64,000 nucleotides of DNA, taken from the NCBI RefSeq assembly GCF_028368935.1, contig NZ_JAQNDK010000002.1, forward strand, positions 1,798,001 to 1,862,000. The letters are read 5' to 3'. Position 1 is the first letter of the stretch. Each line of letters opens with the position of its first letter. This DNA is from Sorangium aterium (GTDB lineage: Bacteria; Myxococcota_A; Polyangia; Polyangiales; Polyangiaceae). The notes under the pieces were generated by a model. The model was not told the DNA's origin. It saw nothing but the letters and a program-made list of their open reading frames with translations, and did no database searches. Position numbers and translations under genes: made by a program. Shown here piece after piece: positions 7,089-49,208 of this stretch.

Positions 7089-9620
7089 ATGGCCTCGGAT
7101 CTCCCGCGAAAGCCCGTCGTGCCGCCCGACGCATCGAGCGATCGGGCCGCACCCGTGGAACGTACGCTCCCCGATGACGGTGGCGCCGATGGCTCAGGCC
7201 CCTCGCCGAGCGAGCGCGCGCCGACGCGGCTCTGGTCCCCACGGCGGTCCGCGGCCGAGCGTGCGCGAGCGGCGCTGGGCGCGCTCTTGCGAGCGGCGCT
7301 GGGCGCGCTCTTGCGGCGGGAGCCCCGCGCGCCGCGGCCCAAGCTGCCGCCCCGCGCGCTGCTCCTCCGCTGGGGAAAGCGGCTCGCGATCGCCCTCGCC
7401 TGCCTCCTTGCCGTCGCCGTGGTCGCCTTCTTCCTCGTCGTCCATCACTACGAGCGCGACCTGCCGACCACCGAGGAGCTCAAGAGCTACAACCCGCCGC
7501 AGGTGACGCGGTTCCTCGCGCGCGACGGCACCGTCATCGGTGAGCTCTTCGTCGAGCGCCGGACGCTCGTGCCCGTCATCGAGATCCCGCCGGTGATGAG
7601 CCTCGCGGCGCTCGCGGCCGAGGACGCCAGGTTCTACAAACACGACGGCCTCAATTACCTGGGCATGCTCCGCGCGCTGATCGTCAATCTGCGCTCGGCG
7701 GAGGCGCGCCAGGGCGGCAGCACGATCACCCAGCAGGTCGTGAAGAACGTGCTGCTCACGCACGAGCGCACGCTGGACCGGAAGGTGCGCGAGCTCCTCC
7801 TCGCGCGCCGTATCGAGCAGGAGCTCACGAAGGACCAGATCCTCGAGCTCTACCTGAACCACATCTACTTCGGGCACGGGCGCTACGGGGTCGAGGAGGC
7901 GGCGCGGTTCTACTTCGGCAAGAGCGTCCGTCAGGTCACGCTGGCCGAGGCGGCGCTCCTCGCGGGCCTCGTGAAGGGGCCCTCCATCTACTCGCCGCGC
8001 GTGAACAAGGAGCGCGCCGAGAAGCGCCGCGCCTTCGTGCTCGGTCAGATGCGCGAGAAGCGCTTCCTGCCCGCGGCGCAGATCGACGCCGCGCTCGCGG
8101 AGCCGATCCGCCTCGCGCCCGAGCCGGAGCACCTGGACGAGCTCGCGCCCGAGGTCCTCGCCGAGGCCGAGCGCGCGCTGCGGAAGGCCGTCGGGCCCGA
8201 CGCGAGGTACGGCGGCTACACGGTCGTGACCTCGATCGACCCGAAGATGCAGGCCGCGGCGCGCGCGGCGGTGCGCCAGAACCTCGACGCCTACGCCGCG
8301 CGGCACGGGCTCGTCGCGCCGTTCACCCGCGCCAAGGGGGATCCGGCGCCCTTCCAGGGCGCGCCCAAGGACGCGGGCCGCGCCTACCTCGGCGCGGTGA
8401 CCGGCGCCGACGACGCGCGCGGGACGCTGGCCGTCCGCGTCGGCACGGCGCAAGGCACCGTCGATCTGCGCAAGGAGCGCCGATACAACCCGCGCGGGCT
8501 CCCGCCGAGCCGCTTCGCCGAGGTCGGCAAGGTGCTGCGCGTGCGCTTCGAGGGCGATCCCGAGGCCGGCAAGCTCCGGCTCGACCTCGGCCCGCAGGGG
8601 GCGCTCGTCGCGATCGACGCGCGCACGCGCGAGATCGTCGCGCTCGCCGGCGGCTACGAGGGCGCGCGCGGCGGCCTCGATCGGGCGAGCAACGCGCACC
8701 GCCAGCCAGGATCGACCTTCAAGGCGATCGTCTACGGCTACGGCATCCATTCGCGAAAGCTCACGGCCGCGTCGATGCTCGAGACCGATCCGGCGGCGCT
8801 CGAGGGCTATCGGCCCGGCAACTACGACGAGAGCGAAGGGCAGAGCCCGAAGCGCCTGCGCGAGGCGCTCGCCCACAGCGTGAACGTGGCCGCGGTGTCG
8901 GCGCTCCGGGACGTCGGCCCCGAGGGCGTGGTCGCGTGGGCGCGGGAGCTCGGGATCGCGTCGAAGCTCGGCGCGGACCTGTCCCTCGCGCTCGGCTCCT
9001 ACGAGGTGACCCCGCGCGAGATGGCGGCCGCCTACGCGACGTTCGCCGCGGGCGGCGCGTACCAGGAGCCCGTCCTCGTGACGAGGATCGCGGGCCCGCG
9101 CGGCGAGGCGCTGCCCCTGCCGGCGCGGCCCCCGCCGCGCCCGGTGATGACCGCGGCGGAGGCGTACATCACGACGGACCTGCTCACCTCGGTCGTGAAG
9201 GTCGGCACGGCGAAGCAGGCGCTCTCGCTGCGCCGGCCGATCGCCGGAAAGACCGGGACGACGAACGACGCGAGGGACGCGTGGTTCGTCGGCTACTCGA
9301 CCGACATCGCGTGCGCCGTGTGGACCGGCTTCGACGACGCCACGACGCTCGGCGCGCGCGAGGTGGGCAGCAGCGCCGCCCTGCCGGCGTTCATCGCGTT
9401 CATGGAGAAGGCGCACGCGGGGCGGCCGGCGACCGACTTCCCGGAGCCGCTCGGAATCGTGCGCCTCCCGATCGACCCGGAGAGCGGGATGCCGGCGTTC
9501 CCCGGCCAGGAGGGCGCTGTGGAGGAGGTGTTCCTCGAGGGCACCGAGCCGACCGGCGTCGCGGTGCCGGACCCGGCCGCGATCGGGCAGGGGATCCTGG
9601 ACCTCTTCAAGACGCAGTGA
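7089..9620 (+). CDS. Class A (PBP1A-type) penicillin-binding protein
   Basis: An 843-residue bifunctional peptidoglycan synthase. Residues 1-95 are a Pro/Arg/Ala-rich cytoplasmic tail containing a perfect 24-bp tandem duplication (7267-7314) that encodes a repeated RAALGALL. One membrane anchor lies at about residues 97-120 (LAIALACLLAVAVVAFFLVV). The GT51 glycosyltransferase begins around residue 178 with catalytic Glu in AAEDARFYKHDG and continues with GGSTITQQVVKN. The transpeptidase carries the serine motif STFK near residue 541, SVN in HSVNVAA, and KTGT near residue 721. The protein polymerises lipid II and crosslinks the stem peptides in the periplasm. It is monocistronic by spacing. 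Confidence 0.95.
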   Translation: MASDLPRKPVVPPDASSDRAAPVERTLPDDGGADGSGPSPSERAPTRLWSPRRSAAERARAALGALLRAALGALLRREPRAPRPKLPPRALLLRWGKRLAIALACLLAVAVVAFFLVVHHYERDLPTTEELKSYNPPQVTRFLARDGTVIGELFVERRTLVPVIEIPPVMSLAALAAEDARFYKHDGLNYLGMLRALIVNLRSAEARQGGSTITQQVVKNVLLTHERTLDRKVRELLLARRIEQELTKDQILELYLNHIYFGHGRYGVEEAARFYFGKSVRQVTLAEAALLAGLVKGPSIYSPRVNKERAEKRRAFVLGQMREKRFLPAAQIDAALAEPIRLAPEPEHLDELAPEVLAEAERALRKAVGPDARYGGYTVVTSIDPKMQAAARAAVRQNLDAYAARHGLVAPFTRAKGDPAPFQGAPKDAGRAYLGAVTGADDARGTLAVRVGTAQGTVDLRKERRYNPRGLPPSRFAEVGKVLRVRFEGDPEAGKLRLDLGPQGALVAIDARTREIVALAGGYEGARGGLDRASNAHRQPGSTFKAIVYGYGIHSRKLTAASMLETDPAALEGYRPGNYDESEGQSPKRLREALAHSVNVAAVSALRDVGPEGVVAWARELGIASKLGADLSLALGSYEVTPREMAAAYATFAAGGAYQEPVLVTRIAGPRGEALPLPARPPPRPVMTAAEAYITTDLLTSVVKVGTAKQALSLRRPIAGKTGTTNDARDAWFVGYSTDIACAVWTGFDDATTLGAREVGSSAALPAFIAFMEKAHAGRPATDFPEPLGIVRLPIDPESGMPAFPGQEGAVEEVFLEGTEPTGVAVPDPAAIGQGILDLFKTQ

Positions 9621-10645: not shown

Positions 10646-13600
10646 TTACGCGACGTCCTCCCGGCTCATCCGGAGCAGCCACAGCGGCGCCAGCGCCTGC
10701 GACAGGCTCCGCACCAGCGCCGACTCGGCATACCCCATCACGTAGTCCTCGATCTCGATAGGCGCCGTCGCGCCCGGGCGGCGCGGCGGGTCGAACCGGA
10801 CCCGTCGCACCACCGGGAGGAGCTCGGCCGGGTTCGGCGGGAGCGCGTGCCCGCGCCGCGCCGCCTCGTCGAACGCCGCCTGCAGCTCGAGGTGCTCCCG
10901 GACCGCGCCCGCCGGCGAGAGGCCCGGCCGGGCCGGCAGGACGCGCACCCGCACCACCTCGGGGCCGCGCGAGAGCGACGTCCAGACGTGCGCGCCCGTC
11001 TCCAGCTCGAAGAAGTCCGTCACGCACAGGCCCACGACGCTCAGGACGAGGAGCTCGGCCCCGCGCCCGGGGGCGGCGAGCATCGCCTCGAGCCCCGCCG
11101 CCCCGCGGCCCTGCTCGACCACGCGCGCGTGCCCGTCGCCGTCGGACGCGCTGCAGAGGGGCGCGCAGGCCCACCCCTCCACCTCACCCCCCGCCTCGCC
11201 GTAGGCGCGCGCGAGCGCCTCGAAGAGCCCCTCCTCGGGCTCGTCGCGCGCGCCGGCCGGCCTCTCGTCGAAGCGCGCCGCGCGGAGCAGCTCGATGAGG
11301 ACCGCGTGCTGGCCCGGCTCGTCCACCTTGCGGAGCGCGCGCCGGAGCGCGTGGCCCTCCGCGATGCACTCAAGGACCTCCTGCTTCGCCGGCCGGCGCA
11401 GCGGGCCCGGCAGCTGGCGCCGGTGGAACAGGCGCACCCTGGAGCGGCTCCACTCGTCCTCGACCGTCACGTAGCCGAACCGCCGGACCTCCAGGTCGAG
11501 GTGCTGCTGCTCGTCGTCGTCGCCGCTCCGCCGCCGGACGAGGTCGATCCGCTCGCGGAACGCCCGGATCGCGCCGCGCATGGCGTCGAGGTTGTAGACC
11601 GCCTCCGCGTGCTCGTGCGCCTCGGGCCCCTCCGCCGCGGTCCGGCTGTGCTCCGCGAGGTGGTAGCGGATCCGCTCGGAGAGGCGCGCGAGGTCGTCGC
11701 TCCGATCGAGCGCGTCGACGAACTCGAGCAGCGGCGAGAGCTCCGCCGTGAGCGCGCCGAGCGGCCTCGCCATGAGCGGCGCGAGGGCCCACGCCGCGGC
11801 CGCGGGCTCGGCCTCCGCGAGCGCCTCGCGGTGCAGCGCAAACGTGGGTGACGCGGGCGACTCGGGTGACCCGGGTGACGCGGCGCCGTCGCTGCGCGCG
11901 GTCGTGAAGATGCGGATCACCTGCATCGCGGCGGGCGCGCCGCGGGTGAGCGCGTCGCTCAGCAGCGATCCGATCTCGTCCTCGATGAACCGCTTCACCG
12001 AGCGGGCGCCGTCCTCGGCAACGAACGCCTCGCGCGCGATCCGCTCGGCCACGCCGGCGCCCCGGCGCACGAAGGCGCTCCGCTCGGCGAGCCCGCGCCG
12101 GGCGAGCAGCCGGTCGAGCTCCTTCTCGGCCACCCGCACCGCCACCTCGGGCGTCAGCGGCCGGAACGGCACGACGCGGTCGATCCGGTTGAACAGCTCG
12201 GGCGGGAAGAAGTCGCGCACCGCCCGCGCGACCTCCTGGGCCGACTCCTCCGCGATCGCGAGCGCCCGCGCCTCGGGCAGTCCCGCGCCGCCGAAGCCCA
12301 CCAGCGCCCGCGACCGCGCGCCCAGGTTGGACGTCATCACCACGACCGCGTGGTGGAAGTGCGCGGGCCTCGCCGCCGCGTCCGTGAGCCGCCCGTCCTC
12401 GAAGAGCTGGAGCAAGAGGCCGTGCACCGACGGGTGCGCCTTCTCGATCTCGTCGAGCAGCACCAGCGAGAACGGCTGCTCCCGCACCCGCTGCGTCAGG
12501 AGCCCGTCGGGCGCGTAGCGATCGCCGACGAGCCGCGCCGGCGCGTCCGGGCCGCTCTGCTCGCTCATGTCGAAGCGGAGCAGGCGCGACGCGCTGCCGT
12601 AGATGAGCTCCGCCATGCACCTGGCGAGCTCGGTCTTGCCGGTCCCCGTCGGCCCTGTGAACAGGTACACGCCGTACGGGCGCCGCGGATCCACGAGGCC
12701 CGCCTTGATGCGCGCCACGAGGTCCGCGGCGGCGCGCACGGCCTCCGGCTGGCCGATCACCCGCCGGCCGAGCTCCTCCTCCAGCGCGCCGGCGTCGAGC
12801 GGCTCGTCGCCGCCCAGGAGGAGCCGCGGTACGCCGGTCTTCTGCGACAGGAGCCGCAGCACGTCCTGCGAGCCGACCGATCGCGACGCGTGGCCGCGCG
12901 CCGGTCCCGGCTCCCCGGAGGACGAGGGCGTCACGCCCGCGCGGACGACCTCGCGCAGGAGGTCGACGGCCTTGCCCGGCAGCGCCTGCGCCGAGAGGAG
13001 CGAGCCGCCGAGATCGAGGATCGTCCGCAGCACGTACGGGCTCACGCGGGCGGCGTGGCGCTGCTCGAGCGCGCGGACCTCCCGCACCATGAGGCGGAAC
13101 GTCTCGGAGGGCGTCGCCTCGGGGAGGAAGAGCGGCGTGAACAGGGCCGCGAACGACGGGGACTCCTGCTCGAGGAGGCGGAACGCCTCGGGGGAGCACT
13201 CGCCGACCATCACGATCTCGCGGCGGGAGAGCGGGCCGCGGAAGAAATCGGCGAGCGAGCGCTCGCTCTCGCGCGACCTGCCGATCCGGCCGAAGTGGTG
13301 GAGGTCGTCGATCACGAGGATCGCGCCCCGGCTGCGCGCGTCGTCGACGAGCTCGACGCACCGCTTCTCCCAGTCGCCGAGGTGGCTCATCCCGGCGATG
13401 AGCCTGCGGCCGCTCACGGCGAAGACGTCGCGGACGCGGTCGAGGTTCTTGTGCGCGCCGTACCCGTCGGCCGCGAGGAGATCGAGCACCGCCCGGTGGA
13501 TCAGGGTCGTCTTGCCGCACCCCGGCGGGCCGACGACGACGACCGGCTGCGCCCTGCCCGCGCCGAGCAGCAGCGCGAGCTGCTCGCGCTGCGGCGATCG

Positions 13601-14260
13601 CGGCACGCCCGCGTCGAGGTTGCCCTGGGCCGCGCGCTGCGTGAGGCTCACGCCGAGGCTCGGCAGGACCTTGAGGCCCCGGCGCTTCTTCCAGCGGAAC
13701 GCCGGATCGGCGCCGGTGTCGTCGTCGCCCGGTCGATCCGGCAGATCGGCGAGCGCCGAGCGCGGGGCGCACGAGAACGACAGCGCCGTGATGCGCTCCT
13801 TGCCCCGGCTCCAGAGCCGCGCGATCTCGTCGTCGTCGAGCGCGGCCCACGCGACCTGGAACAGCGCGCGGAGCTGCTCGTCCAGCGGGAGATCCTCGCG
13901 GATCGGCGCGGCCTCGCCCTGGCGGGCGGGGTGGTAGGCGAAGACGATGCGCTCCTGCTCCGAGGCCCAGCGCGGCTCGAGCACGACGGGGCAGAGCCCG
14001 CTCACCTTGCGCCGGTCGGCGGCGCCGGAGAGCGTGAGCTCGAGGCGCACCTTCTCGAGCCGGATGCCGCGGGGAAACTCGAAGCGCGCGATCTCGGCCG
14101 CGCGCGCCTTCTCGAAGACGGGCCTGAGCTCGTCGGTGAGCAGGCGCCGGACGCGCTCCGAGTGCCGCCCCTCCCGCGAGCGCGTGCTCGGGCCGAGGCC
14201 GAGCGTCACGCACTCGACGTTCGTGGTCCGCCGTTCGAAGAGCGGGATCGTGAAGTGCAC
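10646..14260 (-). CDS. ClpA/ClpB-like double AAA+ ATPase with C-terminal release-factor-like domain
   Basis: A 1204-residue protein, GTG start. Residues 1-200 are an N-domain shared in outline with the paralogue at 15231-17870. AAA1: Walker A GPPGCGKT (244-251), Walker B ILVIDDL (~314-320), pore-loop position GMSHLGDWE instead of the usual Clp AKYRGEFE. AAA2: Walker A GPTGTGKT (536-543), Walker B LLDEIEKAH, pore region GDRYAPDG (~579), sensor TSNLG, arginine-finger region ELFNRIDR, sensor-2 GAR (~751). There is no ClpB-type coiled middle domain. After a Ser/Pro linker (tandem 9-bp units at ~11842-11880), residues ~840-1150 resemble the helical plus PCRF region of release factors (VVGLCVTDFFELETGAHVW), without GGQ. 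It lies 26 bp after the preceding gene in one operon. Expected to be an ATP-driven remodeller; partner and substrate unknown. Confidence 0.75.
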   Translation of the reverse strand: MHFTIPLFERRTTNVECVTLGLGPSTRSREGRHSERVRRLLTDELRPVFEKARAAEIARFEFPRGIRLEKVRLELTLSGAADRRKVSGLCPVVLEPRWASEQERIVFAYHPARQGEAAPIREDLPLDEQLRALFQVAWAALDDDEIARLWSRGKERITALSFSCAPRSALADLPDRPGDDDTGADPAFRWKKRRGLKVLPSLGVSLTQRAAQGNLDAGVPRSPQREQLALLLGAGRAQPVVVVGPPGCGKTTLIHRAVLDLLAADGYGAHKNLDRVRDVFAVSGRRLIAGMSHLGDWEKRCVELVDDARSRGAILVIDDLHHFGRIGRSRESERSLADFFRGPLSRREIVMVGECSPEAFRLLEQESPSFAALFTPLFLPEATPSETFRLMVREVRALEQRHAARVSPYVLRTILDLGGSLLSAQALPGKAVDLLREVVRAGVTPSSSGEPGPARGHASRSVGSQDVLRLLSQKTGVPRLLLGGDEPLDAGALEEELGRRVIGQPEAVRAAADLVARIKAGLVDPRRPYGVYLFTGPTGTGKTELARCMAELIYGSASRLLRFDMSEQSGPDAPARLVGDRYAPDGLLTQRVREQPFSLVLLDEIEKAHPSVHGLLLQLFEDGRLTDAAARPAHFHHAVVVMTSNLGARSRALVGFGGAGLPEARALAIAEESAQEVARAVRDFFPPELFNRIDRVVPFRPLTPEVAVRVAEKELDRLLARRGLAERSAFVRRGAGVAERIAREAFVAEDGARSVKRFIEDEIGSLLSDALTRGAPAAMQVIRIFTTARSDGAASPGSPESPASPTFALHREALAEAEPAAAAWALAPLMARPLGALTAELSPLLEFVDALDRSDDLARLSERIRYHLAEHSRTAAEGPEAHEHAEAVYNLDAMRGAIRAFRERIDLVRRRSGDDDEQQHLDLEVRRFGYVTVEDEWSRSRVRLFHRRQLPGPLRRPAKQEVLECIAEGHALRRALRKVDEPGQHAVLIELLRAARFDERPAGARDEPEEGLFEALARAYGEAGGEVEGWACAPLCSASDGDGHARVVEQGRGAAGLEAMLAAPGRGAELLVLSVVGLCVTDFFELETGAHVWTSLSRGPEVVRVRVLPARPGLSPAGAVREHLELQAAFDEAARRGHALPPNPAELLPVVRRVRFDPPRRPGATAPIEIEDYVMGYAESALVRSLSQALAPLWLLRMSREDVA

Positions 14261-14286
14261 GGCCTCAGGGTAGTGGCTACGCCAGG

Positions 14287-15285
14287 TCAGGCGTCGTGCA
14301 AATCATCCAGCGCCGCGCCGTCCCCGCCTGCGCTGAAGTACTCGCTCCGATCCAGCCCGCTCCCCTCGTCCTCGAACAGGAGCAGGTGCGTCAGCGCGAC
14401 CTCGTCGAGCCGCTCCCAGTACCAGGCCGGGTCCATCGCGATCCGCGCCCTGCGCCCCGCGATCAGCGCCGCGCCCTCGACCTCGTCGAGCTCGCGCGCG
14501 GCCGCCCCGCGCCGCCGCGCCGCGGCCGAGCCGGCGGGCGGCGGGGCGAGCGACCTGTGCTCCCACTGGTCCTCGGCGATGTCGGCCGCGTGCGCGACGA
14601 AGTGCACGAACACGTGCATCCGGCCGTCGTCCGAAGCCTCGCCCGCGTCCCGCTTGCGCGCGACCACCCGGTGGAGCCCTCGCTCCAGCGAGAGGAACGC
14701 CCCGGCGTACGCGCCGGTGCAGCGGAGGAGCACGCTCCGGAACCCGCGCTTCGGCTTGTCGAGCGCCTCCAGCACGTCGCCCGGGGCGCGCGGCGGGCCC
14801 CACCGCCGGCTCGCGGGCCACGCGCCGTCGTTGGGCCCGGCCCGCTCGCCGTCGATGTGCAGCGTCGCGCTCCACCCGCGCCGCGGGAGCTGCCTGAGGA
14901 GCGGCGCGAGCCACCGCTCGAACGCCCCCGCGTCGAGCTCCTCCAGGATCAGCGTGATCGCGTCGCGGCGCGACTCGGTCGCGACGAGCGCGCGGGGCAG
15001 CACCTTGCGCACGCCGTCCCACGCCGCGCGCGCCTCGCCCGCGAGCCCGCGCACCTCCTCGCCCTCGAGCAGCGCCATCAGGGCGAGCTCTTCGACGCCG
15101 TGCATCTCCTCCTGCGCGCGCTCGAGCTGCCCCCAGAGCTCGCTCAGCCGGTGGTGCTCCGCCTGCAGCGCCGCGGCGTCGATCTCCTTCCGCCGATCGC
15201 GCGACGGCCCGCTCGCGAGGCTCAGCTGCGTCAGCAGGAAGTCGATCTGCTCTTGAGCTGCTCGAGCGGCCCGAGGCCCATCCAC
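14287..15285 (-). CDS. Release-factor-like (PCRF core) protein lacking GGQ
   Basis: A 332-residue protein, GTG start at 15285 with GAGG seven bases upstream; it overlaps the preceding AAA gene by 55 nt in another frame. Residues 1-105 are helical, like domain 1 of RF1/RF2. Residues ~107-230 follow the RF2 core: RRDAITLILEELDAGAFERW corresponds to the strand/helix after the RF2 GSGGTEAQDW region, and SVLLRCTGAYAGAFLSLERG followed by LHRVVARK matches the GxYAYGxLxxExGVHRLVR signature. The SPF-type stop-codon motif is replaced by RDAGEASDD. The final ~100 residues have no GGQ loop. It therefore should not catalyse peptide release. Placement between two Clp-like genes suggests an adaptor or ribosome-docking subunit; that role is inferred. 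Confidence 0.75.
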   Translation of the reverse strand: MDGPRAARAAQEQIDFLLTQLSLASGPSRDRRKEIDAAALQAEHHRLSELWGQLERAQEEMHGVEELALMALLEGEEVRGLAGEARAAWDGVRKVLPRALVATESRRDAITLILEELDAGAFERWLAPLLRQLPRRGWSATLHIDGERAGPNDGAWPASRRWGPPRAPGDVLEALDKPKRGFRSVLLRCTGAYAGAFLSLERGLHRVVARKRDAGEASDDGRMHVFVHFVAHAADIAEDQWEHRSLAPPPAGSAAARRRGAAARELDEVEGAALIAGRRARIAMDPAWYWERLDEVALTHLLLFEDEGSGLDRSEYFSAGGDGAALDDLHDA

Positions 15286-17870
15286 CGGTCCACCTCGCGC
15301 CGGAGCTCGCCGAGCTGCTCGACGCCGAACGCCTGCTGCGCCGCCTTCGCCGCGCGCCGCCGCCGCGCCACGAGGCGGAGCGCGGGCGTCTCGGCGCGGG
15401 CCACGACGGCGCCGTCGGCGGGCGCCGCCGCGTCAGGCTCGCCCGCCTCGGCCACCCACACCGTGAGCTCCCGCGCGTCGCCCCCGAGCTTCGCGAGCAG
15501 CCGCGCGAGCGGCGCCGCGAGGTGCTCCTCGACGTGCCGGCGCAGCGCCCGCGCCCCGTACGCCGGCGCGTGGCCGTCCTCGGCGAGCCGCGCGAGCGCC
15601 CGCTCCGACACCTCGAGCGCGACGCCCGCCTCCGACAGCCCGCGGCGCTGGGCGAGGCGCTGCGCCGTGAGGCGCGCGACCTCGGCGAGCTCCGCGCGGG
15701 TCAGCGCCCGGAACGGCACGACGCGATCGATGCGGTTCACGAACTCCTGCCGGAACGCGCCCGCGACGACGCGCTGGTAGTGCGCCTCGTCCAGCGCGGC
15801 CTGCTCCTCCGGCCGCTCCGCGCCCCGCTCGCCGGCGAACCCGGCCCGCGCGCGCCGCTCCGCCGCGCCGAGGTTCGAGGTCATGATCACGATCGCGTTG
15901 TGGAAGTACGCCGTCCTGCCGCGCGCGTCGGACAGGCGCCCCTCGCCGAGCACCTGCAGCAGGAGATCGAACACGGCCCGGTGGGCCTTCTCGATCTCGT
16001 CGAGCAGGAGCACGCAGAACGGCTGCTCGCGCACGCGCTGCGTGAGCAGCCCGCCCGCGCCGTCGGTCCCGCGGATCAGGCGATCGGCCGCGCCCTCGCT
16101 CGAGAACTCGCTCATGTCGAACCGCGAGAGCCGATCGGGCGAGCCGAAGAGCAGCCCGGCGAGCGCGCGGGCCAGCTCGGTCTTGCCGACGCCCGTCGGC
16201 CCCACGAAGAGGAACGCCGCGAGCGGCTTGTCGGGCGGCGAGAGCCCCGCCTTCACCACGGCGATCGTCTCGGCGAGCGCGCGCACCGCGCGCTCCTGCC
16301 CGACCACGCTCGCGCCGAGGGCGCGCGCCACGCGGTCGACGCGGAGCGGGAGATCGTCGCGCAGCAAGAACGCCGGCATCCCTGTGCGCATCGAGAACAG
16401 CTCGTAGAGATCGCCCCGCCCGAGCGTGACCGGCTCCCCCTGCGCTGTCCGCTCCCGCTCGTGCACGGCGCGCAGGTCCTCGTAGAGGCGGACCGCCTTG
16501 CCGGGAAACGCGCTGTACGGCAGGTAGCGCTCCGCGAGATCGACGAGCGCCGTCAGCGCGTCGGCCGCGACCGCGGGGCGGTGCGGCTCGACGCGCGCGT
16601 CGCGCTCGGCGCGCGCGCCGAGCGCCTTCCGGGTATCGGCGGCCGAGAGCGGATCGATCCGGATGCGGCTCAGGCCCGCGAAGAACGCCCAGTGCCGCCC
16701 CTCGAGCGCGTCGAGCCGGTCGTCCCGGAGCTCGCACAGGACGCGCACCCGCCCCTCGTCGAGGTAGGGCCGCATCGCGCCGGCCAGGTCCACGTGGCCC
16801 CCGTCGACGCGCTCGGCCAGGAGGTCGTCGAGGTTCTCGAAGTAGAGCACCGCGTCGAGCGCGGCGGCGGCCTCCATCACGCCGTGGATGCGCTCCTGCC
16901 ACTGCCCGAGCCCGCTCATGCCCGCGATGAGCTGCGCGCCCGACGTCGCGTAGACGAGCCGCGTCTGGCGGGCGACGTACGCCAGCGCGAGCGCGGTCTT
17001 CCCGGCGTGCTCCGGGCCCACGAGCAGCACGCCGAGGCGCTCCTCGCCGTCGAGCAGCGCCGCGAGGCGCGCGAGCTCCGCGTCGCGGCAGGCGAGCGGC
17101 GGCGCCGCGTGCGGGCTCCGCTGCGCCGCCACGTGGAGCGGCGTCGCCACCGCGACGAGCGCCTCCACCGCCTTCTTCCGCCGCGCGCGCTCCACGATCG
17201 AGGCGCCGCGCGGCCCGTGCCCGCCCGCGCGCTCGGGCTCGGGCAGCCGCGTGTGGAGCACCTCCAGGCGGTGCGCGCTCCCGGGCAGGAGCCCCAGGTG
17301 CTCCCACGTCGACAGGACCTGCGACGCGAGCAGCCGGCGCACCTCGTGCCGGATCGCCGCCTCGATCGGCTCGCCCGCCTCCACGTAGAACGCGTGCCCG
17401 AGGCTCGGCACGAGCACCCACGCGTCGCTGTCGCCGCGCTCCGCCGGCGTCTCCGTCTGCCCGCGCCCGCTCAGCTCGCCGGCCGGCACGACGACGCAGG
17501 GGAAGCTCACCGGCACCTCGTTCCGCAGCTTGCGCGGCAGATCGTCGCGCGGGACGGGGACGCTCACGGAGAGGAGCCCCGTCCCTTGCGGGAACGAGAG
17601 CCGGGAGACCGCCTCGGGCCGGGCGCGTATGGCGTGCTCGCGCAGGAAGAGCTGCTGCTCGACGAGGACGTCCTCGTCGCGGCCGAAGCTCGCGACGTCC
17701 GGCGCCGCGACGGGGAAGGCGAGGCACGCGCCGTCGAAGCGCTCGCGCACGAAGACGAGCGCCCTCGAGGTGCGCCCCTCGCTCGCGTCGCGAGCTCCTT
17801 CCGCGGACGCGCCCGCTCCGTCCTCTGGAGCGGGCGCGGATTGTCCGTCGTCGCTGGAGCTCATGCTCAT
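15231..17870 (-). CDS. ClpA/ClpB-like double AAA+ ATPase with degenerate first ATPase site
   Basis: An 879-residue protein. Residues 1-35 are low complexity; ~36-250 form an N-domain resembling that of the 1204-residue paralogue (FLREHAIRARPEAVSRLSFP, then a beta strand). AAA1: P-loop GPEHAGKT (285-292); the Walker B position reads VLYFENL, so the usual Asp-Glu pair is Glu-Asn; the pore position reads GMSGLGQWQ. AAA2 is well preserved: GPTGVGKT (557-564), LLLDEIEKAH, TSNLG, EFVNRIDRVV, GARALRR near the end. The AAA2 pore loop (RGTDGAGGLL) has no aromatic residue, unlike Clp GYVG. The C-terminal helix (GELRREVDRWMGLGPLEQLK) aligns with the start of the release-factor-like region of the larger paralogue, and the next gene continues that alignment in another frame. 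Confidence 0.8.
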   Translation of the reverse strand: MSMSSSDDGQSAPAPEDGAGASAEGARDASEGRTSRALVFVRERFDGACLAFPVAAPDVASFGRDEDVLVEQQLFLREHAIRARPEAVSRLSFPQGTGLLSVSVPVPRDDLPRKLRNEVPVSFPCVVVPAGELSGRGQTETPAERGDSDAWVLVPSLGHAFYVEAGEPIEAAIRHEVRRLLASQVLSTWEHLGLLPGSAHRLEVLHTRLPEPERAGGHGPRGASIVERARRKKAVEALVAVATPLHVAAQRSPHAAPPLACRDAELARLAALLDGEERLGVLLVGPEHAGKTALALAYVARQTRLVYATSGAQLIAGMSGLGQWQERIHGVMEAAAALDAVLYFENLDDLLAERVDGGHVDLAGAMRPYLDEGRVRVLCELRDDRLDALEGRHWAFFAGLSRIRIDPLSAADTRKALGARAERDARVEPHRPAVAADALTALVDLAERYLPYSAFPGKAVRLYEDLRAVHERERTAQGEPVTLGRGDLYELFSMRTGMPAFLLRDDLPLRVDRVARALGASVVGQERAVRALAETIAVVKAGLSPPDKPLAAFLFVGPTGVGKTELARALAGLLFGSPDRLSRFDMSEFSSEGAADRLIRGTDGAGGLLTQRVREQPFCVLLLDEIEKAHRAVFDLLLQVLGEGRLSDARGRTAYFHNAIVIMTSNLGAAERRARAGFAGERGAERPEEQAALDEAHYQRVVAGAFRQEFVNRIDRVVPFRALTRAELAEVARLTAQRLAQRRGLSEAGVALEVSERALARLAEDGHAPAYGARALRRHVEEHLAAPLARLLAKLGGDARELTVWVAEAGEPDAAAPADGAVVARAETPALRLVARRRRAAKAAQQAFGVEQLGELRREVDRWMGLGPLEQLKSRSTSC

Positions 17871-17942: not shown

Positions 17943-19061
<1,119 letters not shown>

Positions 19062-19547
19062 GAGGTCTCCTGGCTCGTGAGGACGCCGTCCACGGTATGA
19101 GAGAGCCGCCGTGGACGTCAACGCGCGCCGCGGCCGCGCCGTCGGGCGCGCTCGCCGGCCAAGGCGCGGTGCTGGCGGCGGTCGCGGGGGCGCCTCCGGG
19201 GTGATGCATGTTACCGGTCGGCTGCGACTCGCGGTCTCGAAGGTAGCGCAATGGATGTCGAGGTGCCTCCTGCGCGCCTATCTCCTCCGAGGTGCGCTTC
19301 TCCGCTTCGCCCAATTTCTCCGAGATGCCGCGCGGCGCGCTCGCGCGGCCTGCGGGGCGTGGCAGGTGGGCTGCGGGAGGGCGGAAGCGTGGGAGCGCGG
19401 AAACGCCGGATAACGGAAGCGCGGAAACGCGGAAACGCCGGATAGCGGAAGCGCGGGAGGGCGGAAGCGCGGGACCGTGGGCGACACGAGGCCGGCCGGC
19501 GAGGGGCCCCTTGCGCGCCCGGGGGGCGCCGGGCAACCCTTCCGGCC
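19062..19547. other. Intergenic region with degenerate GGAA-rich tandem repeats
   Basis: This 486-bp spacer lies between divergent genes (peroxidase and SDR). Bases ~19381-19472 contain imperfect copies of a unit resembling GCGGAAGCGCGGAAACGCC, including GGAAACGCCGGATA followed by CGGAAGCGC twice. No gene is supported. Promoters for both flanking genes should lie here, but I see no convincing box. Confidence 0.6.
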
Positions 19548-26904: not shown

Positions 26905-29900
26905 ATGGCCCGAACCCGCGAGAATGTATTTATGACAAGTGGGGCTGCTTACACATTGACGGGGGTCATCCACGAATCCACGGCGACGACGGTCTACCGG
27001 GGAGTTCGAGAGAGCGACCGCTCGCCGGTGGCGATCAAGCGGCTCAAGAGCGAGCGCCCGCTGCCGGTCGAGATCGCGAAGCTCAAGTACGAATACGCCA
27101 TCGCCCGAGACCTCGCGCTGCCGGGCGTCGTGAGGGTCTATGGGATCGAGAAGGTGGGGAGCAGCCTCGCGCTCATCATGGAGGACGCGGGCGAGCGCCC
27201 GCTCAACGAGATCATCGGCGCGAGCAAGCTGAAGCTGGAGGACGCGCTCCGTATCGCGATCTCGATCGCCGACGTCCTGGAGTCGATCCATCGGAGAGGC
27301 GTCACGCACATGGACGTCAAGCCGCACAACATCCTCGTCGACGCGGAGACGTTGCAGGCCAAGCTGACGGATTTCGGCAGCGCGACGCGCCTATCGCAGG
27401 AAGCCCACAAAGCGAGCCGCTTCGCGTCCTTCGAGGGGACCCTGGCCTACATGTCGCCGGAGCAGAGCGGGCGGCTGAACGTCGTCATCGATCGCCGCAC
27501 GGACCTCTACTCCCTGGGCGTCACCCTGTACGAGATGGTGACGGGCGTCCTCCCCTTCCGGACGACGGACCTCATGGACCTCGTGCACAGCCACATCGCG
27601 CGGACCCCGCCGGCGCCGCACACCGTGTCGCCCGCGGTGCCGAGCGCCGTGTCCGACATCGTGATGAAGCTGCTCGCCAAGAGCCCCGACGACAGGTACC
27701 AGAGCGCCCACGGGCTCAAGGTCGACCTGGAAGAGTGCTCGTCGCAGCTCTCCTCGAAGGGGAAGATCGAGCCGTTCCCCGCCGGCCGATACGACTACGT
27801 CGATGAGCTGCGGGCGCCTCAGAAGCTCTACGGCCGGGAGACCGAGGTCGCGCTCCTCTCCGACGCCTGGGGCCGCACGAGGCAGGGCGGCAGCGAGTCC
27901 GTCCTGGTCTCCGGCTACTCCGGGATCGGCAAGTCGGTCCTCGTGAACGAGCTCCAGAAGAGCGTCGTTCGCGAGAGAGGGTATTTCGCGACCGGCAAGT
28001 TCGACCAGCTCAACCGGACCACCCCGTACGCGGCCGTCGCGCACGTCTACCAGGAGCTCCTCCGCAACATCATGGCGGAGCCCGCCGAGGCGCTGGCGCA
28101 GTGGAAGAGCAGGCTGGGGGAGGCGGTCGGCTCGAACGGGCAGCTCCTCATCGACCTGATACCGGAGCTCGAGCTCCTCATCGGCCCTCAGCCGGCCGTC
28201 CAGGCGCTCGGCCCCACGGAGTCCCAGGCGCGGTTTCAGCTGACGCTCCACAACTTCTGCCGCGCCTTCCCCTCCAAGGATCGCCCCCTGGTCCTCTTCT
28301 TCGATGACCTGCAGTGGGCGGACGCGGCGTCGCTCAAGTTCCTTCAGACCATCGCGGCCGAAGCGCGCATCGCCTACATGCTCATGATCGGCGCGTACCG
28401 CGACAACGAGGTCGACGCGAGCCACCTGTTCTCCGTGGTCCTCGGGGAGCTCCGCACGAAGGCGGCGGGGGTGAGCGAGCTTTCGCTCAAGCCGCTCGCC
28501 TTCTCCGACGTGAACCAGCTCGTCGCCGACACGTTGAGCTGCGATCCTCATCGCGCGGAGCCCCTCGCGAGGCTCATCTTCGACAAGACCCGGGGCAACC
28601 CGTTCTTCATGAGCCAGCTCATGAAGAGCCTGCACGCAGAGAAGCTCCTCTCGTTCGACCCCACCCGCTTCTCGTGGACATGGGACGTCGATCGCATCCA
28701 CGAGGCGAAGGCCTCGGAGAACGTGATCGAGCTCATGGTGGGCAAGATGCGCCGGCTGCCCGAGCGCGCCCAGCGCGTCCTCTCCCTCGCGGCGTGCGTC
28801 GGCCACCAGTTCGATCTGACGACGCTGGCGATCGTCACGAGGCGGTCTCGCCAGGAAGCGGCCCGCGAGCTCTGGGGCGTGCTCCGCGAGGGGTTCATCC
28901 TCCCCGTGGACGCGGAGTCCAGGTTCTTCGATATCGCGATGGACGGTGAGCTCGCCGTCGCCGAGGACGGCTCCGGCGAGGAGCTCAACGTCTCTTACAG
29001 GTTCTTGCACGATCGCGTGCAGCAGGCCGCCTACGCGCTCATGGACGACGCGGACAAGCAGGCGGCGCACCTCCAGATCGGGCGGCTGATGCTGGAGGAC
29101 AGCAGGCGAGATCAGTCCGAGGCCGAGCTGTTCGACATCGTGGGCCACATGAACAGGGGCGTCGCCCTGATCACGGACGAGCGCGAGAGGCGGACGCTCT
29201 CGGGGCTGAACCTCGACGCAGGCAAGCGGGCGAAGATGGGGGCCGCCTATGACGCCGCGGTCCATTACCTCGAGGTCGGGACATCGCTGCTCGATCAGGA
29301 GAGCTGGAAGCGCGAGTACGAGCTCACGTTCGGGCTCCACGCCGAGCTCGCGGAGTGCAGGTGTCTGAACGGCAGCTTCGAGGCGGCCGAGCCGCTGCTC
29401 GACGTCCTCTCTGCCCAGGCGAAGAGCACGCTGGATCGCGCGAACATCTGCGTCCTGCGCATGACCTTCTTCGTGATGACCGGCCAGATCGGCAAGGTGA
29501 TCAGCCAGGCGCTGGAGGCGCTCGGCCTCTTCGGGATCGACATCCCCGAGGGGGTCGAGGAGCGCGACGCGATGCTGCGCAAAGAGCTCGCCGCCATGCG
29601 CGCGGGCCTGGAGGGGCGCGAGATCGCCGAGCTCATCGACCTGCCGCCGGCCGCCAGCGCGGAGACACAGAAGATCCTGAGCCTCCTGGGCGAGCTGGCG
29701 ACGCCGGCGAACGCCGTGGATCCCACGCTCGCGCTGCTCGCGGTGGTCAAGCAGATCAACCTGTCGATGAAGCACGGGAACTCGGCCATGTCCGCCGTGG
29801 GGTACGTCACGTACGGCAGCATGCTGGTGAACGACCTACCCCAGCTCCGAGGCAACCCGCGGCGGCACGAGGAGGGATACGCGTTCGCGAAGCTAGGGAT

Positions 29901-31995
29901 CGAGCTCAACGAGAAGTTCAACGACATCCGCCTCACCTGCAAGCTCCTGATCTACTTCGCGGCGATACTCCATTTCTTCGAGCACCTCACGGTGGCGATC
30001 GACTATTTCGGGCGCGCCCGCGAGGCCGGGCTGGCGAGCGGCGACCCGGTCTTCTCGTCGTTTTGCTGCATGCATATCGCGGCGGCGAAGCTGAACCTCG
30101 GTGACGAGCTGGACGCGCTCGCGGAAGAGATCGAGCAGAACCTCGCGCTCGTGCGGCGGATCGGCGATCTGACCACGATCCACACGCTGATCTGCGCGAA
30201 GCAGGTGGTCGCGAACCTCACGGGCCGAACCGAAGGGGGGCACTCCCTGAGCGGCGGCTCGTTCGACGAGGCCGAGTTCACGAGGTCGATCGAGGGGCCG
30301 GAGTTCGGCTATGTGGCCAGCTGGTACAGCGCCTTCAAGCTTCAGCTGAGCTACCTTCACGGGGACTACGCGGCCGCGCGCTCGTTCCTGGCCGCGGCCG
30401 AGCGGCAGATCGCGGGGTGGTCGAGCCACGCCTGGGCGACGGAGATCGTGTTCTTCGGCTGCTTGACGCTCGCGGCGTCGTGCGACGCGGCGCCGGCCGG
30501 CGAGCGGGAGCAGCACATGGAGGCGCTCGCGAGGCTCGAGGCGAAGCTGCGCCGCTGGGCGGAGCTGAGCCCGTCCAACTACGCCCACAAGAGCACCCTC
30601 GTGGCGGGCGAGGTGGCGCGCCTCTCGGGGCGGACGCGGGACGCCATGATGCTTTACGAGAAGGCGATCGACGGGGCGAGGGCGAACCGGTTCGTGCGCG
30701 ACGAGGCGATCGCGAACGAGCTCGCGGCGAAGCTGTACGAGGGCGAGGGGCTGCTCCGGAGCGCTCGCGCCTTCATGACGGACGCGTACCACGCGTACCT
30801 CTTGTGGGGCGCGACAGCCAAGGTGGAGAGCCTGGCGCGGGTCGCGCCCCACCTCGTGCCTCCCGACGGAGGGCTCCTCGGGCCGCGCAGCGTGACCGCG
30901 TCGTCATCGCGCTCCAGCCGGGCCCAGACCACGTCGACGACGCGGCTCAGCACGAGCATCCTCGACGTGGAAGCGGTCATCCGGGCCGCGCAGGCGCTCG
31001 CGGGCGAGGTCGTCCTGGAGAGCGTCGTGAGCCGGCTGATGGAGATCGTCATCAAGAACTCCGGCGCGCAGAAGGGCGCCCTCATCCTCGATCGCGAGCA
31101 GCACCTGCTCGTCGAGGCGGTCGTCACGGCGGAGCCGAGCTCGCTCCGGGCAGGCCTGGCCATCCCGCTCGAGGGGAGCGACGACGTGCCGGTCTCCATC
31201 GTGCAGTACGTCGCGAGGACGAGGGAGCCCGTGATCCTGGCGGACGCGACGCAGGAGCCCCGGTTCGCGAGCGACCCGTACGTCGCCGCGTGCGCCCCGA
31301 GGTCGATCCTGTGCCTGCCCATGGTCCACCAGGGCCGGACCAAGGGGATCATCTACCTGGAGAACCGGCTCGCCCCGAGCACCTTCAAGCCGGCGCGGCA
31401 GGAGCTCGTCAGGCTCCTCTTGTCCCAGGCCGGGACGGCCGTGGAGAACGCGCTGCTCTACGAGCACCTGGAGCACCGCACGGCGGCGCTCCAGGAGGCC
31501 GAGCAGCGGCTCGGGGTCGAGTTCGCCGGGCGAGAGCGGAGCGAGCGGGCGCGCCTGTCGCTGCAGGAAGAGATCATCCGGGTGCAGAACGATCGGCTCG
31601 CGGAGCTGTCCACCCCCCTCATCCCGATCACCGACCGGATCATGGTCATGCCGCTGATCGGGATGATGGACCGCGCGCGGGCCCAGCAGGCGCTCAGCAC
31701 CGCGCTGCACGGGGTCGAATCGAACGGCGCCGAGGTCGTGATCCTCGACATCACCGGCGTGAAGCTCGTCGACACCGACGTCGCGAGCACGCTGATGTCC
31801 ACCGCGAAGGCCCTCCGGATGCTCGGGGCGCAGGCGGTGCTCACCGGCATCCGCCCCGAGGTCGCGACGACCCTCACGGGCCTGCAGATCGAGTTCAAGG
31901 AGATCGTGACGCGGGGGACGCTCCAGAGCGGCATCGCGTACGCGCTGCAGAGGACGGGGAGGCCCGAGGCCCTCGCGAAGAGCGCTGCGCGCTGA
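26905..31995 (+). CDS. Giant Ser/Thr kinase-AAA-GAF-STAS signalling protein
   Basis: A 1696-residue cytoplasmic protein. Kinase domain ~15-275: Lys45 in VAIKRLK, catalytic HMDVKPHN (HRD reads HMD), DFGSA near 156, SPE in MSPEQSG. AAA/STAND-type ATPase from ~310: Walker A GYSGIGKS near 336, Walker B LVLFFDDLQWAD near 460. A long helical, TPR-like region covers ~620-1330. GAF domain ~1365-1520 (SGAQKGALILDREQHLLVEA). A short coiled coil leads to a C-terminal STAS domain ~1570-1690 (VVILDITGVKLVDTDVASTL). The layout follows the kinase/ATPase/GAF proteins common in myxobacteria and cyanobacteria, but with STAS in place of a histidine kinase or cyclase. It likely integrates ligand sensing with partner-switch signalling. 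ATG 26932 is an alternative start. Confidence 0.88.
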   Translation: MARTRENVFMTSGAAYTLTGVIHESTATTVYRGVRESDRSPVAIKRLKSERPLPVEIAKLKYEYAIARDLALPGVVRVYGIEKVGSSLALIMEDAGERPLNEIIGASKLKLEDALRIAISIADVLESIHRRGVTHMDVKPHNILVDAETLQAKLTDFGSATRLSQEAHKASRFASFEGTLAYMSPEQSGRLNVVIDRRTDLYSLGVTLYEMVTGVLPFRTTDLMDLVHSHIARTPPAPHTVSPAVPSAVSDIVMKLLAKSPDDRYQSAHGLKVDLEECSSQLSSKGKIEPFPAGRYDYVDELRAPQKLYGRETEVALLSDAWGRTRQGGSESVLVSGYSGIGKSVLVNELQKSVVRERGYFATGKFDQLNRTTPYAAVAHVYQELLRNIMAEPAEALAQWKSRLGEAVGSNGQLLIDLIPELELLIGPQPAVQALGPTESQARFQLTLHNFCRAFPSKDRPLVLFFDDLQWADAASLKFLQTIAAEARIAYMLMIGAYRDNEVDASHLFSVVLGELRTKAAGVSELSLKPLAFSDVNQLVADTLSCDPHRAEPLARLIFDKTRGNPFFMSQLMKSLHAEKLLSFDPTRFSWTWDVDRIHEAKASENVIELMVGKMRRLPERAQRVLSLAACVGHQFDLTTLAIVTRRSRQEAARELWGVLREGFILPVDAESRFFDIAMDGELAVAEDGSGEELNVSYRFLHDRVQQAAYALMDDADKQAAHLQIGRLMLEDSRRDQSEAELFDIVGHMNRGVALITDERERRTLSGLNLDAGKRAKMGAAYDAAVHYLEVGTSLLDQESWKREYELTFGLHAELAECRCLNGSFEAAEPLLDVLSAQAKSTLDRANICVLRMTFFVMTGQIGKVISQALEALGLFGIDIPEGVEERDAMLRKELAAMRAGLEGREIAELIDLPPAASAETQKILSLLGELATPANAVDPTLALLAVVKQINLSMKHGNSAMSAVGYVTYGSMLVNDLPQLRGNPRRHEEGYAFAKLGIELNEKFNDIRLTCKLLIYFAAILHFFEHLTVAIDYFGRAREAGLASGDPVFSSFCCMHIAAAKLNLGDELDALAEEIEQNLALVRRIGDLTTIHTLICAKQVVANLTGRTEGGHSLSGGSFDEAEFTRSIEGPEFGYVASWYSAFKLQLSYLHGDYAAARSFLAAAERQIAGWSSHAWATEIVFFGCLTLAASCDAAPAGEREQHMEALARLEAKLRRWAELSPSNYAHKSTLVAGEVARLSGRTRDAMMLYEKAIDGARANRFVRDEAIANELAAKLYEGEGLLRSARAFMTDAYHAYLLWGATAKVESLARVAPHLVPPDGGLLGPRSVTASSSRSSRAQTTSTTRLSTSILDVEAVIRAAQALAGEVVLESVVSRLMEIVIKNSGAQKGALILDREQHLLVEAVVTAEPSSLRAGLAIPLEGSDDVPVSIVQYVARTREPVILADATQEPRFASDPYVAACAPRSILCLPMVHQGRTKGIIYLENRLAPSTFKPARQELVRLLLSQAGTAVENALLYEHLEHRTAALQEAEQRLGVEFAGRERSERARLSLQEEIIRVQNDRLAELSTPLIPITDRIMVMPLIGMMDRARAQQALSTALHGVESNGAEVVILDITGVKLVDTDVASTLMSTAKALRMLGAQAVLTGIRPEVATTLTGLQIEFKEIVTRGTLQSGIAYALQRTGRPEALAKSAAR

Positions 31996-47465: not shown

Positions 47466-48014
47466 GCTCGTCCCCGAATCATCCCATCCCCGGCGAGGTT
47501 CCGGTGTTCACCGTCTCTCGTCGGACGGAACGACCACGCCTCGCCCGGCAGCGCGCCGTGGACTCCCTTGATTCCGCCTCGGGCATCAAGGCTCCATCGA
47601 GCGCGGTTCGCAATGCCACGCTGCTGCCGTGTGGTGCCGTGTTGTCCAGTATTTGCGCAAGACCCTGATTGCTTCTGTACGGCCGATTCGAGTGTGTCCG
47701 GCGCGTCTGCCGAGCTTGCGGCGCACGTTGTCTTATTGGAGGATGAGGGGTCTGCCCCCTCGGCCTCAGGCGCCTCCCTCTCTCCTCGCGGGTCTGCGCT
47801 TCGCAGGCCTCCCCACGGCTCTGCCTGGCTCTTCGCCAAGGCGCGTCGCGCCGGGAAAGACGTGAAAAGACGTGGAAAGACTTGAAAAGACGCGAGTCGC
47901 TCGACGAACGGGAGCGCCCTGTACGGATGACATCACGGGAGGATCACCCGCCGTGACGATCGGATGAATCTCCAGTATAACGCGAGTGCCGAAATTCCGA
48001 GGGGGGGAGGGAAC
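47466..48014. other. Intergenic region with AAAAGACGTG tandem repeat
   Basis: This 549-bp spacer separates two plus-strand genes. At ~47853-47893 an 11-bp-like unit (GAAAAGACGTG and variants) is repeated four times. It lies ~120 bp upstream of the FIST gene and could be a regulator-binding array or slippage product. The remaining sequence shows no supported gene. Confidence 0.5.
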
Positions 48015-49208
48015 ATGGCGACACAGGTATTTGTCGGGGCGAGCTCCGCGGCGGATCCGAAAGAGGCTGCCTCAGAGGCCGTGGCGACGGCGCTCCGCGG
48101 GTCTTCCCGCACGGAGCATGCGGCGCGACCGGCGTTCGCCCTCGTCTTATCGACGGACCAGTACGACGCCGACGCGCTCGCCGCGGCCGTGACGAGCCAG
48201 CTGCCGGGCGTCCCCTGGGCGGGGTGCTGCACTGCAGGGGTCTTCGCCGGCAGCCGGCTGCTCCGGCAGGGGCTCGTGGTGGGGCTTGTCGCCTCGGGGA
48301 CGGTGCGTGTCGGCGTCGGGGTCGCGCAGCCGGTGAGCCAGGACGGGCGGCGCGCCGGCGTGCTGGCCGCCTCGCGCGCCCTCGAGGCGTTCCCGTCGTC
48401 CGTCGCTCCCGGGTGGAGCCGCGCGCTCATCGTGCTGCCGGACGCGGTCACGGGCAACGGGGCCGACGTGGTGCGCGGCGCGGTCGAGGTCGGCGGGACG
48501 GGCGTCGTCTGGGCCGGCGGCGGCGCGGGCGACAACCTTCGCTTCGTGCGCACCGCCCAGTTCGCGGGCGGCAGGGCCTACTCGGACAGCGTGGTCGTTG
48601 TCGCCATCGACTCGCCGGCGCGCATGGCGACCGGCATCCGCCACGGCTTCCGGCCGTATGGCCCGCCCACGATGGTCACCCGCGCCGAGGGCACGGTCCT
48701 CGCCGAGCTCGAGTACGAGGGCGCCTTCTCGGTCTACCAGCGCACCGCGCGCGCGAGGGGGCATCAGGTGAACATCGACGGCTTCGCCACGTTCGCCATG
48801 ACCCACCCGCTCGGCATCCCGCAGGCCGACGGCGAGCACGTCATCCGCGACCCGCTGCGCGTCGTCTCGCCGGGGGGGCTCTACTGCGTCGGCGAGGTCC
48901 CGGACGGGTGCCTCATCCGCGTCATGGAGGGCGACCCCATCGGCCTCGTCGGCGCCGCGCGCGAGGCCGCGACCACGGCGCGCGACGCGGTGGCCGGGCC
49001 CATCGCCGGAGCGTTCGTGTTCGACTGCATCTCGCGGTGCATGATGCTCGGCGAGACGGTGCGCGACGAGCTGACCACCTTCGAGAGCGAGCTCGGCGAG
49101 AGCGTCCCGGTGATGGGCTGTCTGACCTTTGGAGAGGTCGGCACGCTGGGCCGAGGAGTACCGCAGTTTCACAACAAGACCGCTGTCGTGCTCGCCCTGG
49201 GGGCCTGA
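48015..49208 (+). CDS. FIST-domain sensory protein
   Basis: A 397-residue protein; ATG 48015 follows GGGGGAGGGA. An N-terminal FIST domain (~20-215; ALVLSTDQYDADALAAAVTS, GVPWAGCCTAGVF, GVVWAGGGAGDNL) is followed by a FIST_C domain (~225-380; EYEGAFSVYQRTA, PVMGCLTFGEVG, QFHNKTAVVLALG). FIST proteins are thought to bind small ligands, perhaps amino acids, and feed signal-transduction chains. There are no membrane segments. The next gene, a histidine kinase, begins 25 bp downstream, so the two probably form a cytosolic sensor-kinase pair. No response regulator is adjacent. Confidence 0.88.
   Translation: MATQVFVGASSAADPKEAASEAVATALRGSSRTEHAARPAFALVLSTDQYDADALAAAVTSQLPGVPWAGCCTAGVFAGSRLLRQGLVVGLVASGTVRVGVGVAQPVSQDGRRAGVLAASRALEAFPSSVAPGWSRALIVLPDAVTGNGADVVRGAVEVGGTGVVWAGGGAGDNLRFVRTAQFAGGRAYSDSVVVVAIDSPARMATGIRHGFRPYGPPTMVTRAEGTVLAELEYEGAFSVYQRTARARGHQVNIDGFATFAMTHPLGIPQADGEHVIRDPLRVVSPGGLYCVGEVPDGCLIRVMEGDPIGLVGAAREAATTARDAVAGPIAGAFVFDCISRCMMLGETVRDELTTFESELGESVPVMGCLTFGEVGTLGRGVPQFHNKTAVVLALGA

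What the first reader, a model, noticed from the sequence alone, without database searches (positions are those of the whole stretch)
10646..17870. Operon of two Clp-like AAA+ proteins around a release-factor-like protein: candidate undescribed system
Seen: three minus-strand genes with a 55-nt overlap and a 26-bp gap encode a double-AAA protein (879 aa), a 332-aa protein with the PCRF signature of class I release factors (GAYAGAFLSLERGLHRVV), and a second double-AAA protein (1204 aa). Known: Clp/Hsp100 AAA proteins unfold or disassemble substrates; release factors bind the ribosomal A site. Inferred: the release-factor-like part docks on ribosomes or a mimicking partner while the AAA ring remodels or extracts something. 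It has neither GGQ nor an SPF motif, so ordinary termination is unlikely. I know of no characterised pathway with this combination.
Basis: partly seen in the sequence, partly recalled or inferred. Interest (0 to 1): 0.87.

Follow-up and report, generated by a model that had tools for sequence, protein, structure and literature searches.

The report
Three-part Clp-like ATPase with release-factor domains
Myxobacteria carry a set of three related Clp-like ATPases that are gained and lost together; one of them, and probably a second, ends in the ribosome-binding half of a translation release factor without its catalytic part, which points to an undescribed ATP-driven machine that probably acts on ribosomes.

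Summary
The "879-aa AAA" and the "332-aa RF-like" ORFs are one gene, split in this genome by a 1-bp deletion; in relatives they form one ORF of about 1200 aa (A1). A1's C-terminus is homologous to class I release-factor domains 1-2: all 31 PDB profile hits are RF1/RF2 (best 2.8e-5), and profile-profile gives E 1.7e-7 over 240 columns. GGQ is absent. The second protein (A2) probably carries a diverged copy. A third paralogue (A3), not in the window, follows A2 in most relatives. In 379 Myxococcota genomes, A1 and A2 occur in exactly the same 33, and A3 in 32 of these and nowhere else. Two complete Sorangium genomes that lost A1/A2 also lost A3, which is unlinked in that genus. All three keep an intact second ATPase domain, a degenerate first one, no GYVG pore loop and a new N-domain; A2 and A3 keep a ClpA-like VGF loop. 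I judge this an undescribed ternary AAA+ system, most likely translation-linked. Ribosome docking and ClpP coupling are inferred, not shown. AlphaFold failed on the allowed shallow alignment.

The parts
15234..17870 (-). A1, N-terminal part: new N-domain (about aa 36-200), degenerate AAA D1, intact AAA D2 (AAA_2 at 15723-16229), D2-small domain
   Evidence: Pfam AAA_2 7.5e-41; continuous with the next part in relatives
14290..15255 (-). A1, C-terminal part: class I release-factor domains 1-2 (PCRF-like), no GGQ domain; family motif WP..RRWGPP
   Evidence: hmmsearch of the family profile against PDB hits only RF1/RF2
15250..15258 (-). Site of the 1-bp deletion that splits A1 into two ORFs in this genome
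   Evidence: Junction alignment with three Sorangium relatives
14662..14775 (-). PCRF core motif (GFRSVLLRCTGAYAGAFLSLERGLHRVV)
   Evidence: Pfam PCRF residues 171-208
10649..14260 (-). A2: N-domain homologous to that of A1, degenerate D1, intact D2 (AAA_2 at 12176-12682), VGF loop, C-terminal domain
10649..11842 (-). C-terminal domain of A2, probable diverged copy of the RF-like domain (motif VVGLCVTDFFELETGAHVW at about 10970-11038)
   Evidence: hhalign A1 C-term against A2 C-term E 1.4e-5 over 200 columns; A2 C-term against RF family E 0.0011

Best explanation
A1, A2 and A3 are three paralogous Clp/Hsp100-type AAA+ proteins that work as one obligate machine, probably a mixed ring. SHOWN: common architecture, strict co-occurrence, co-loss even when unlinked, RF domains 1-2 in A1. 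PROBABLE: a diverged RF domain in A2. INFERRED: the RF-like C-terminal domains of A1 and A2 dock the complex at the factor site or A site of ribosomes (or of a ribosome-derived complex) without reading stop codons or releasing peptide, because the recognition loop and the GGQ domain are gone. ATP hydrolysis by the D2 ring, the only one with complete Walker A/B, sensor and arginine-finger residues, then remodels that complex, for example by clearing, splitting or inactivating stalled or dormant ribosomes. The VGF loops of A2 and A3 leave open hand-over of a client to ClpP. By analogy this would be a bacterial counterpart of the eukaryotic pairing of an RF-like protein (Vms1) with the AAA+ ATPase Cdc48.
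For: RF homology: 31 of 31 PDB profile hits are RF1/RF2; hhalign score 62, E 1.7e-7, 240 columns, shuffles at most 20.5. The A1 profile also picks up genuine RF1 genes: 9 of 12 sampled weak hits are RF1 with GGQ at +54. A2 C-term: E 1.4e-5 to A1, 0.0011 to RF. Unit: A1 and A2 in the same 33 of 379 genomes, A3 in 32 of these 33 only; order A1-A2-A3 conserved; no other conserved neighbour; mirror-tree r 0.90-0.92 for all pairs; A3 unlinked yet co-lost with A1/A2 in G003 and G004. Motifs: intact D2, degenerate D1, VGF loop. Purifying selection on both halves of A1 and on A2 (dN/dS about 0.29-0.37). Ribosomal L7/L12-CTD-like tail after the RF domain in several A1 homologues. Two ClpP genes in the genome.
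Against: No experiment and no confident structure (AF2 pLDDT 40). The codon-recognition loop is not conserved and GGQ is absent, so ribosome binding cannot be read off the sequence. The D2 pore-loop motif GYVG is missing in all three, and the D1 aromatic is missing in A1 and retained in only part of A2, which argues against ordinary threading to ClpP. No translation or ribosome gene was found as a conserved neighbour of the cassette. A2's direct match to RF is weak.
Confidence: 0.42

Rival explanations
1. A ternary AAA+ remodelling machine in which the release-factor fold was taken over as an oligomerisation or client-adaptor domain, with no ribosome contact; the real substrate is something else (for example a storage, sporulation or envelope complex).
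For: Codon loop and GGQ domain lost; family-specific WP..RRWGPP insert with near-invariant residues; no translation neighbours.
Against: Both helical domain 1 and domain 2 are retained (240 aligned columns), and several homologues add an L7/L12-CTD-like domain.
Confidence: 0.27
2. A conflict or anti-phage system: the ATPase set senses or shuts down translation on invasion, with the RF-like domain as the part that engages ribosomes.
For: Patchy distribution with loss inside one genus, self-contained cassette in varied contexts, large multi-domain NTPases in multicellular bacteria.
Against: No PADLOC match beyond generic AAA; none in plasmids; no toxin-like effector domain; trees of the three parts agree; remnants show loss rather than transfer in G004.
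Confidence: 0.15
3. A ClpA-like unfoldase set that feeds ClpP, with the RF-like domains as ribosome tethers for co-translational degradation.
For: VGF/IGF/LGF loop at the ClpP-loop position in A2 (nearly all) and A3 (most), as in the genome's own ClpA; two ClpP genes.
Against: D2 GYVG pore loop missing in all three; D1 pore tyrosine kept in A3, in part of A2 and not in A1.
Confidence: 0.14
4. Artefact: chance motif similarity and a split gene of no wider meaning.
For: Single-sequence PCRF match is below Pfam's cut-off; the split itself is a frameshift.
Against: Family profile hits only release factors; shuffled and reversed controls fail.
Confidence: 0.02

Closest known systems
ClpA/ClpC (Hsp100 unfoldases of ClpP)
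   Same: Two AAA modules, intact D2 Walker A/B, sensor 1, arginine finger, sensor 2; VGF loop in A2/A3
   Different: No Clp-N domain; new N-domain; D1 Walker B and arginine fingers degenerate; GYVG pore loop absent; about 280-330 bits against a curated ClpA cut-off of 993; three obligate paralogues; RF-like C-terminal domains
ClpB/ClpG/ClpK disaggregases and ClpV (TssH)
   Same: Hsp100 core, D2-small domain
   Different: No M-domain, no type VI neighbours, far below all NCBIfam cut-offs
Class I release factors RF1/RF2
   Same: Domain 1 (helical) and domain 2 (PCRF, G..ag.L..E.GlHR) homologous
   Different: No GGQ domain, no conserved PxT/SPF loop, fused to the C-terminus of an AAA+ ATPase
Torsins
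   Same: Clp-related AAA+ without aromatic pore loops (PMC7175109)
   Different: Eukaryotic, need a cofactor to supply the arginine finger (PMC7175109); D2 here keeps its own arginine finger
Vms1-Cdc48 (eukaryotic ribosome quality control)
   Same: RF-like protein working with an AAA+ ATPase (PMC6514570)
   Different: Unrelated RF fold (aeRF1 superfamily), separate polypeptides

Membership tests
Class I release factor | PCRF domain (domains 1-2) | tested here: met
   only RF1/RF2 in PDB, E 1.7e-7 profile-profile; single sequence below Pfam gathering score
Class I release factor | GGQ catalytic domain | tested here: not met
   GGQ occurs in 3 of 41 A1 and 1 of 38 A2 C-termini, in unrelated contexts (two near the C-terminal end, one near the start), unlike the +54 position seen in RF1
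Class I release factor | PxT/SPF stop-codon loop | tested here: not met
   Loop after GLHR is variable in length and sequence
ClpA/ClpB/ClpC/ClpG/ClpK/ClpV equivalogs | NCBIfam curated score | tested here: not met
   At most about 333 bits against cut-offs of 885-1900
Clp/Hsp100 superfamily | Tandem AAA with Hsp100 D2 and D2-small | tested here: met
   AAA_2 and ClpB_D2-small above cut-off in A1, A2, A3
Clp/Hsp100 superfamily | Aromatic pore loops (D1 KYRG-type, D2 GYVG) | tested here: not met
   D2 motif absent from all three in aligned representatives; D1 Tyr in A3, in part of A2, not in A1
ClpP-partner ATPases | IGF/VGF-type ClpP loop | tested here: met
   [VIL]GF at the ClpA position in nearly all A2 and most A3; binding itself not tested
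Known anti-phage systems (PADLOC) | Specific model match over the whole protein | tested here: not met
   Only generic AAA-domain matches
Ribosome-associated factor | Physical binding to ribosomes | not testable with these tools
   Needs gradients, pull-down or cryo-EM

The most novel reading that the evidence does not exclude
A previously undescribed class of bacterial translation-control machine: a mixed ring of three Clp-like ATPases tethered to ribosomes by catalytically dead release-factor domains, which remodels or dismantles stalled or dormant ribosomes.
Probability: 0.35. Interest if true: 0.93.

Novelty: categorically new. Interest (0 to 1): 0.8.

Why it matters
No AAA+ ATPase fused to release-factor domains was found in the papers searched, and the broad evolutionary survey of release factors (PMC6514570) contains neither 'Clp' nor 'myxobacteria'. 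Direct coupling of an ATP-driven ring to a release-factor fold would give bacteria an analogue of the eukaryotic Vms1-Cdc48 pairing. The strict three-way co-occurrence makes it testable in Sorangium or in a heterologous laboratory host: delete or express the set and ask whether it binds ribosomes. It also shows a release-factor fold surviving without its catalytic domain, so that fold must serve another purpose.

Tried and rejected
Three separate genes: rejected, the first two are one frameshifted gene. Direct profile match of A2 C-term to RF with 13 sequences was no better than its reversed control; with 36 sequences it rose above controls. A2 profile against PDB: nothing relevant. Known Clp families, PADLOC systems and a type VI link: rejected. 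Plasmid search: no match; viral profile scan could not be set up. A first mirror-tree run gave a false low correlation for A3 because a wrong frame was used for the window's A3; corrected. Promoter/terminator and repeat scans showed only paralogy of the two AAA genes and chance-level signals. Phyla outside Myxococcota could not be sampled with the tools left.

Full report
OBSERVATION. The window lies in a 13.5-Mb genome whose closest named relatives are Sorangium. The three minus-strand ORFs are present at the stated coordinates with the stated overlap and gap. Pfam finds Hsp100-type AAA in 10646-14260 and 15231-17870, and a sub-threshold PCRF match (E 0.0017) in 14287-15285; phmmer against PDB gives RF2 at E 0.016.

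GENE STRUCTURE. Matches were found in 17 of 59 relatives and the own genome at first pass, one of them (G004) only marginal, and 40 loci were read in all. In all of them except the window, and except one locus whose A1 is broken elsewhere (L104), the AAA part and the RF-like part are one open frame, typically about 1130-1250 aa; residue 875 of the AAA ORF is followed by residue 11 of the RF-like ORF. The window lacks one base relative to three Sorangium relatives at the junction. Both halves are still under purifying selection (dN/dS 0.37 and 0.34 against So ce26; A2 0.29), so the split is a sequencing error or very recent. I call the fused protein A1 and the 1204-aa protein A2.

RELEASE-FACTOR HOMOLOGY. 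An alignment of 16 A1 C-termini searched against PDB returns 31 distinct sequences, every one RF1 or RF2, best E 2.8e-5. Profile-profile comparison with RF1/RF2 from related genomes gives E 2.6e-6 over 201 columns with 16 sequences and E 1.7e-7 over 240 columns with 38; column-shuffled controls stay at or below 20.5 against 62.2. The aligned span covers the helical domain 1 and domain 2. Used on whole genomes, the profile also recovers real RF1 genes as weak hits: 9 of 12 checked carry GGQ at +54 from the motif. The A1 family has no GGQ at that place, a variable recognition loop, and its own conserved insert WP..RRWGPP. In a few relatives the RF-like domain is followed by a ribosomal L7/L12-CTD-like segment (Pfam best E 7.3e-6, three members; motif in four).

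A2. The C-terminal 400 residues of A2 match the A1 C-term at E 1.4e-5 over 200 columns (shuffles at most 17.7) and the RF family at E 0.0011 (score 34.9; shuffles at most 25.8; reversed 21.8), aligning ELETGAHVW with the RF E.GVHR motif. I regard a diverged RF-like domain in A2 as probable, not proven.

A3 AND THE UNIT. In 29 of 40 loci a third Hsp100 paralogue of about 800 aa follows A2; no other neighbour is conserved beyond close relatives. In 379 Myxococcota genomes the A1 C-term (E < 1e-38) occurs in 33, the A2 C-term in the same 33, and the A3 N-domain (E < 1e-40) in 32 of these and in no other genome at that strength; the remaining weak A3 hits lie mostly at the Walker-A end of the profile and are generic Clp proteins. 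The one exception, G043, has a contig that ends inside A2. In the window's genome A3 lies on another contig (G000:C7, 54191-56434). Two complete Sorangium genomes, G003 and G004, lack A1 and A2: the flanks are present, with a clean gap in G003 and short remnants of both genes in G004. Both also lack A3, which in G001, the related complete genome that keeps all three, lies about 10.8 Mb away in contig coordinates. Distance matrices of A1, A2 and A3 agree (r 0.90-0.92; permutations at most 0.23). Together this shows functional coupling independent of linkage, although relatedness of the genomes means the counts are not independent events.

CATALYTIC AND BINDING MOTIFS. Against the genome's own ClpA and ClpB, all three keep D2 Walker A, DEIEKA Walker B, TSN sensor, NR(I/L)D arginine finger and GAR sensor 2; D1 Walker B is degraded (A1 LYFENLDD, A2 IDDLHH, A3 HVGALLP) and the D1 arginine-finger pair is missing. 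The GYVG pore loop of D2 is absent in the aligned representatives of all three. The D1 pore tyrosine is kept in A3 and in part of A2 and lost in A1. A VGF-type loop sits at the ClpP-loop position in A2 and most A3, weaker in A1. The N-domains of A1 and A2 (E 5e-6) and of A1 and A3 (E 5.5e-5) are homologous; outside the AAA region the A3 N-domain matches nothing convincing in Pfam or PDB. None reaches any NCBIfam Clp cut-off; PADLOC gives only generic AAA matches. The genome has two ClpP genes.

INTERPRETATION. Shown: an obligate three-protein Hsp100-derived set with RF domains 1-2 on A1. Probable: an RF-like domain on A2. Inferred: a mixed ring driven by D2, docked through the RF-like domains on ribosomes or a ribosomal complex, without termination activity. 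Loss of pore-loop motifs has a precedent in Torsins (PMC7175109), so remodelling without classic threading is plausible; the VGF loops keep a ClpP route open. An RF-like protein paired with an AAA+ ATPase has a functional precedent in Vms1-Cdc48 (PMC6514570), with an unrelated fold. Literature searches found no description of this fusion or set; the library is open-access only, so absence there is weak evidence.

LIMITS. No structure: AlphaFold2 on four near-identical sequences gave pLDDT 40. Distribution outside Myxococcota was not sampled, apart from plasmids (none). Function is inference.

Noticed in passing
window 32017-43593 (-): 3858-aa hybrid NRPS-PKS: condensation and AMP-binding domains, methyltransferase, KS-AT and a terminal thioesterase.
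   Followed up: no
window 26905-31995 (+): 1696-aa protein with Ser/Thr kinase, AAA_16, GAF and STAS domains.
   Followed up: no
window 47964-49208 (+): FIST sensor-domain protein.
   Followed up: no
window 17943-19121 (-): MauG-type di-haem cytochrome c peroxidase directly upstream of A1; adjacent to the cassette in four Sorangium genomes only.
   Followed up: partly
G000:C7:54191-56434 (L127:8110-10434): The window genome's A3 paralogue sits on a different contig, unlinked from A1-A2.
   Followed up: yes
L134 (G004) 8287-9396: Short remnants of A1 and A2 at the otherwise empty site: the system was lost here, with A3 missing too.
   Followed up: yes
L022:8144-9127 (-): In So ce26 a 328-aa ORF with RLGLDEGK repeats lies between A1 and A2.
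   Followed up: no
L026, L027, L029, L093, A1 C-termini: L7/L12 C-terminal-domain-like segment (GVGLKEAK) appended after the release-factor-like domain.
   Followed up: partly
L104:1543-5569: A1 is broken in a second genome too (G137), near the N-domain/D1 boundary; A1, A2 and A3 are otherwise in order.
   Followed up: no
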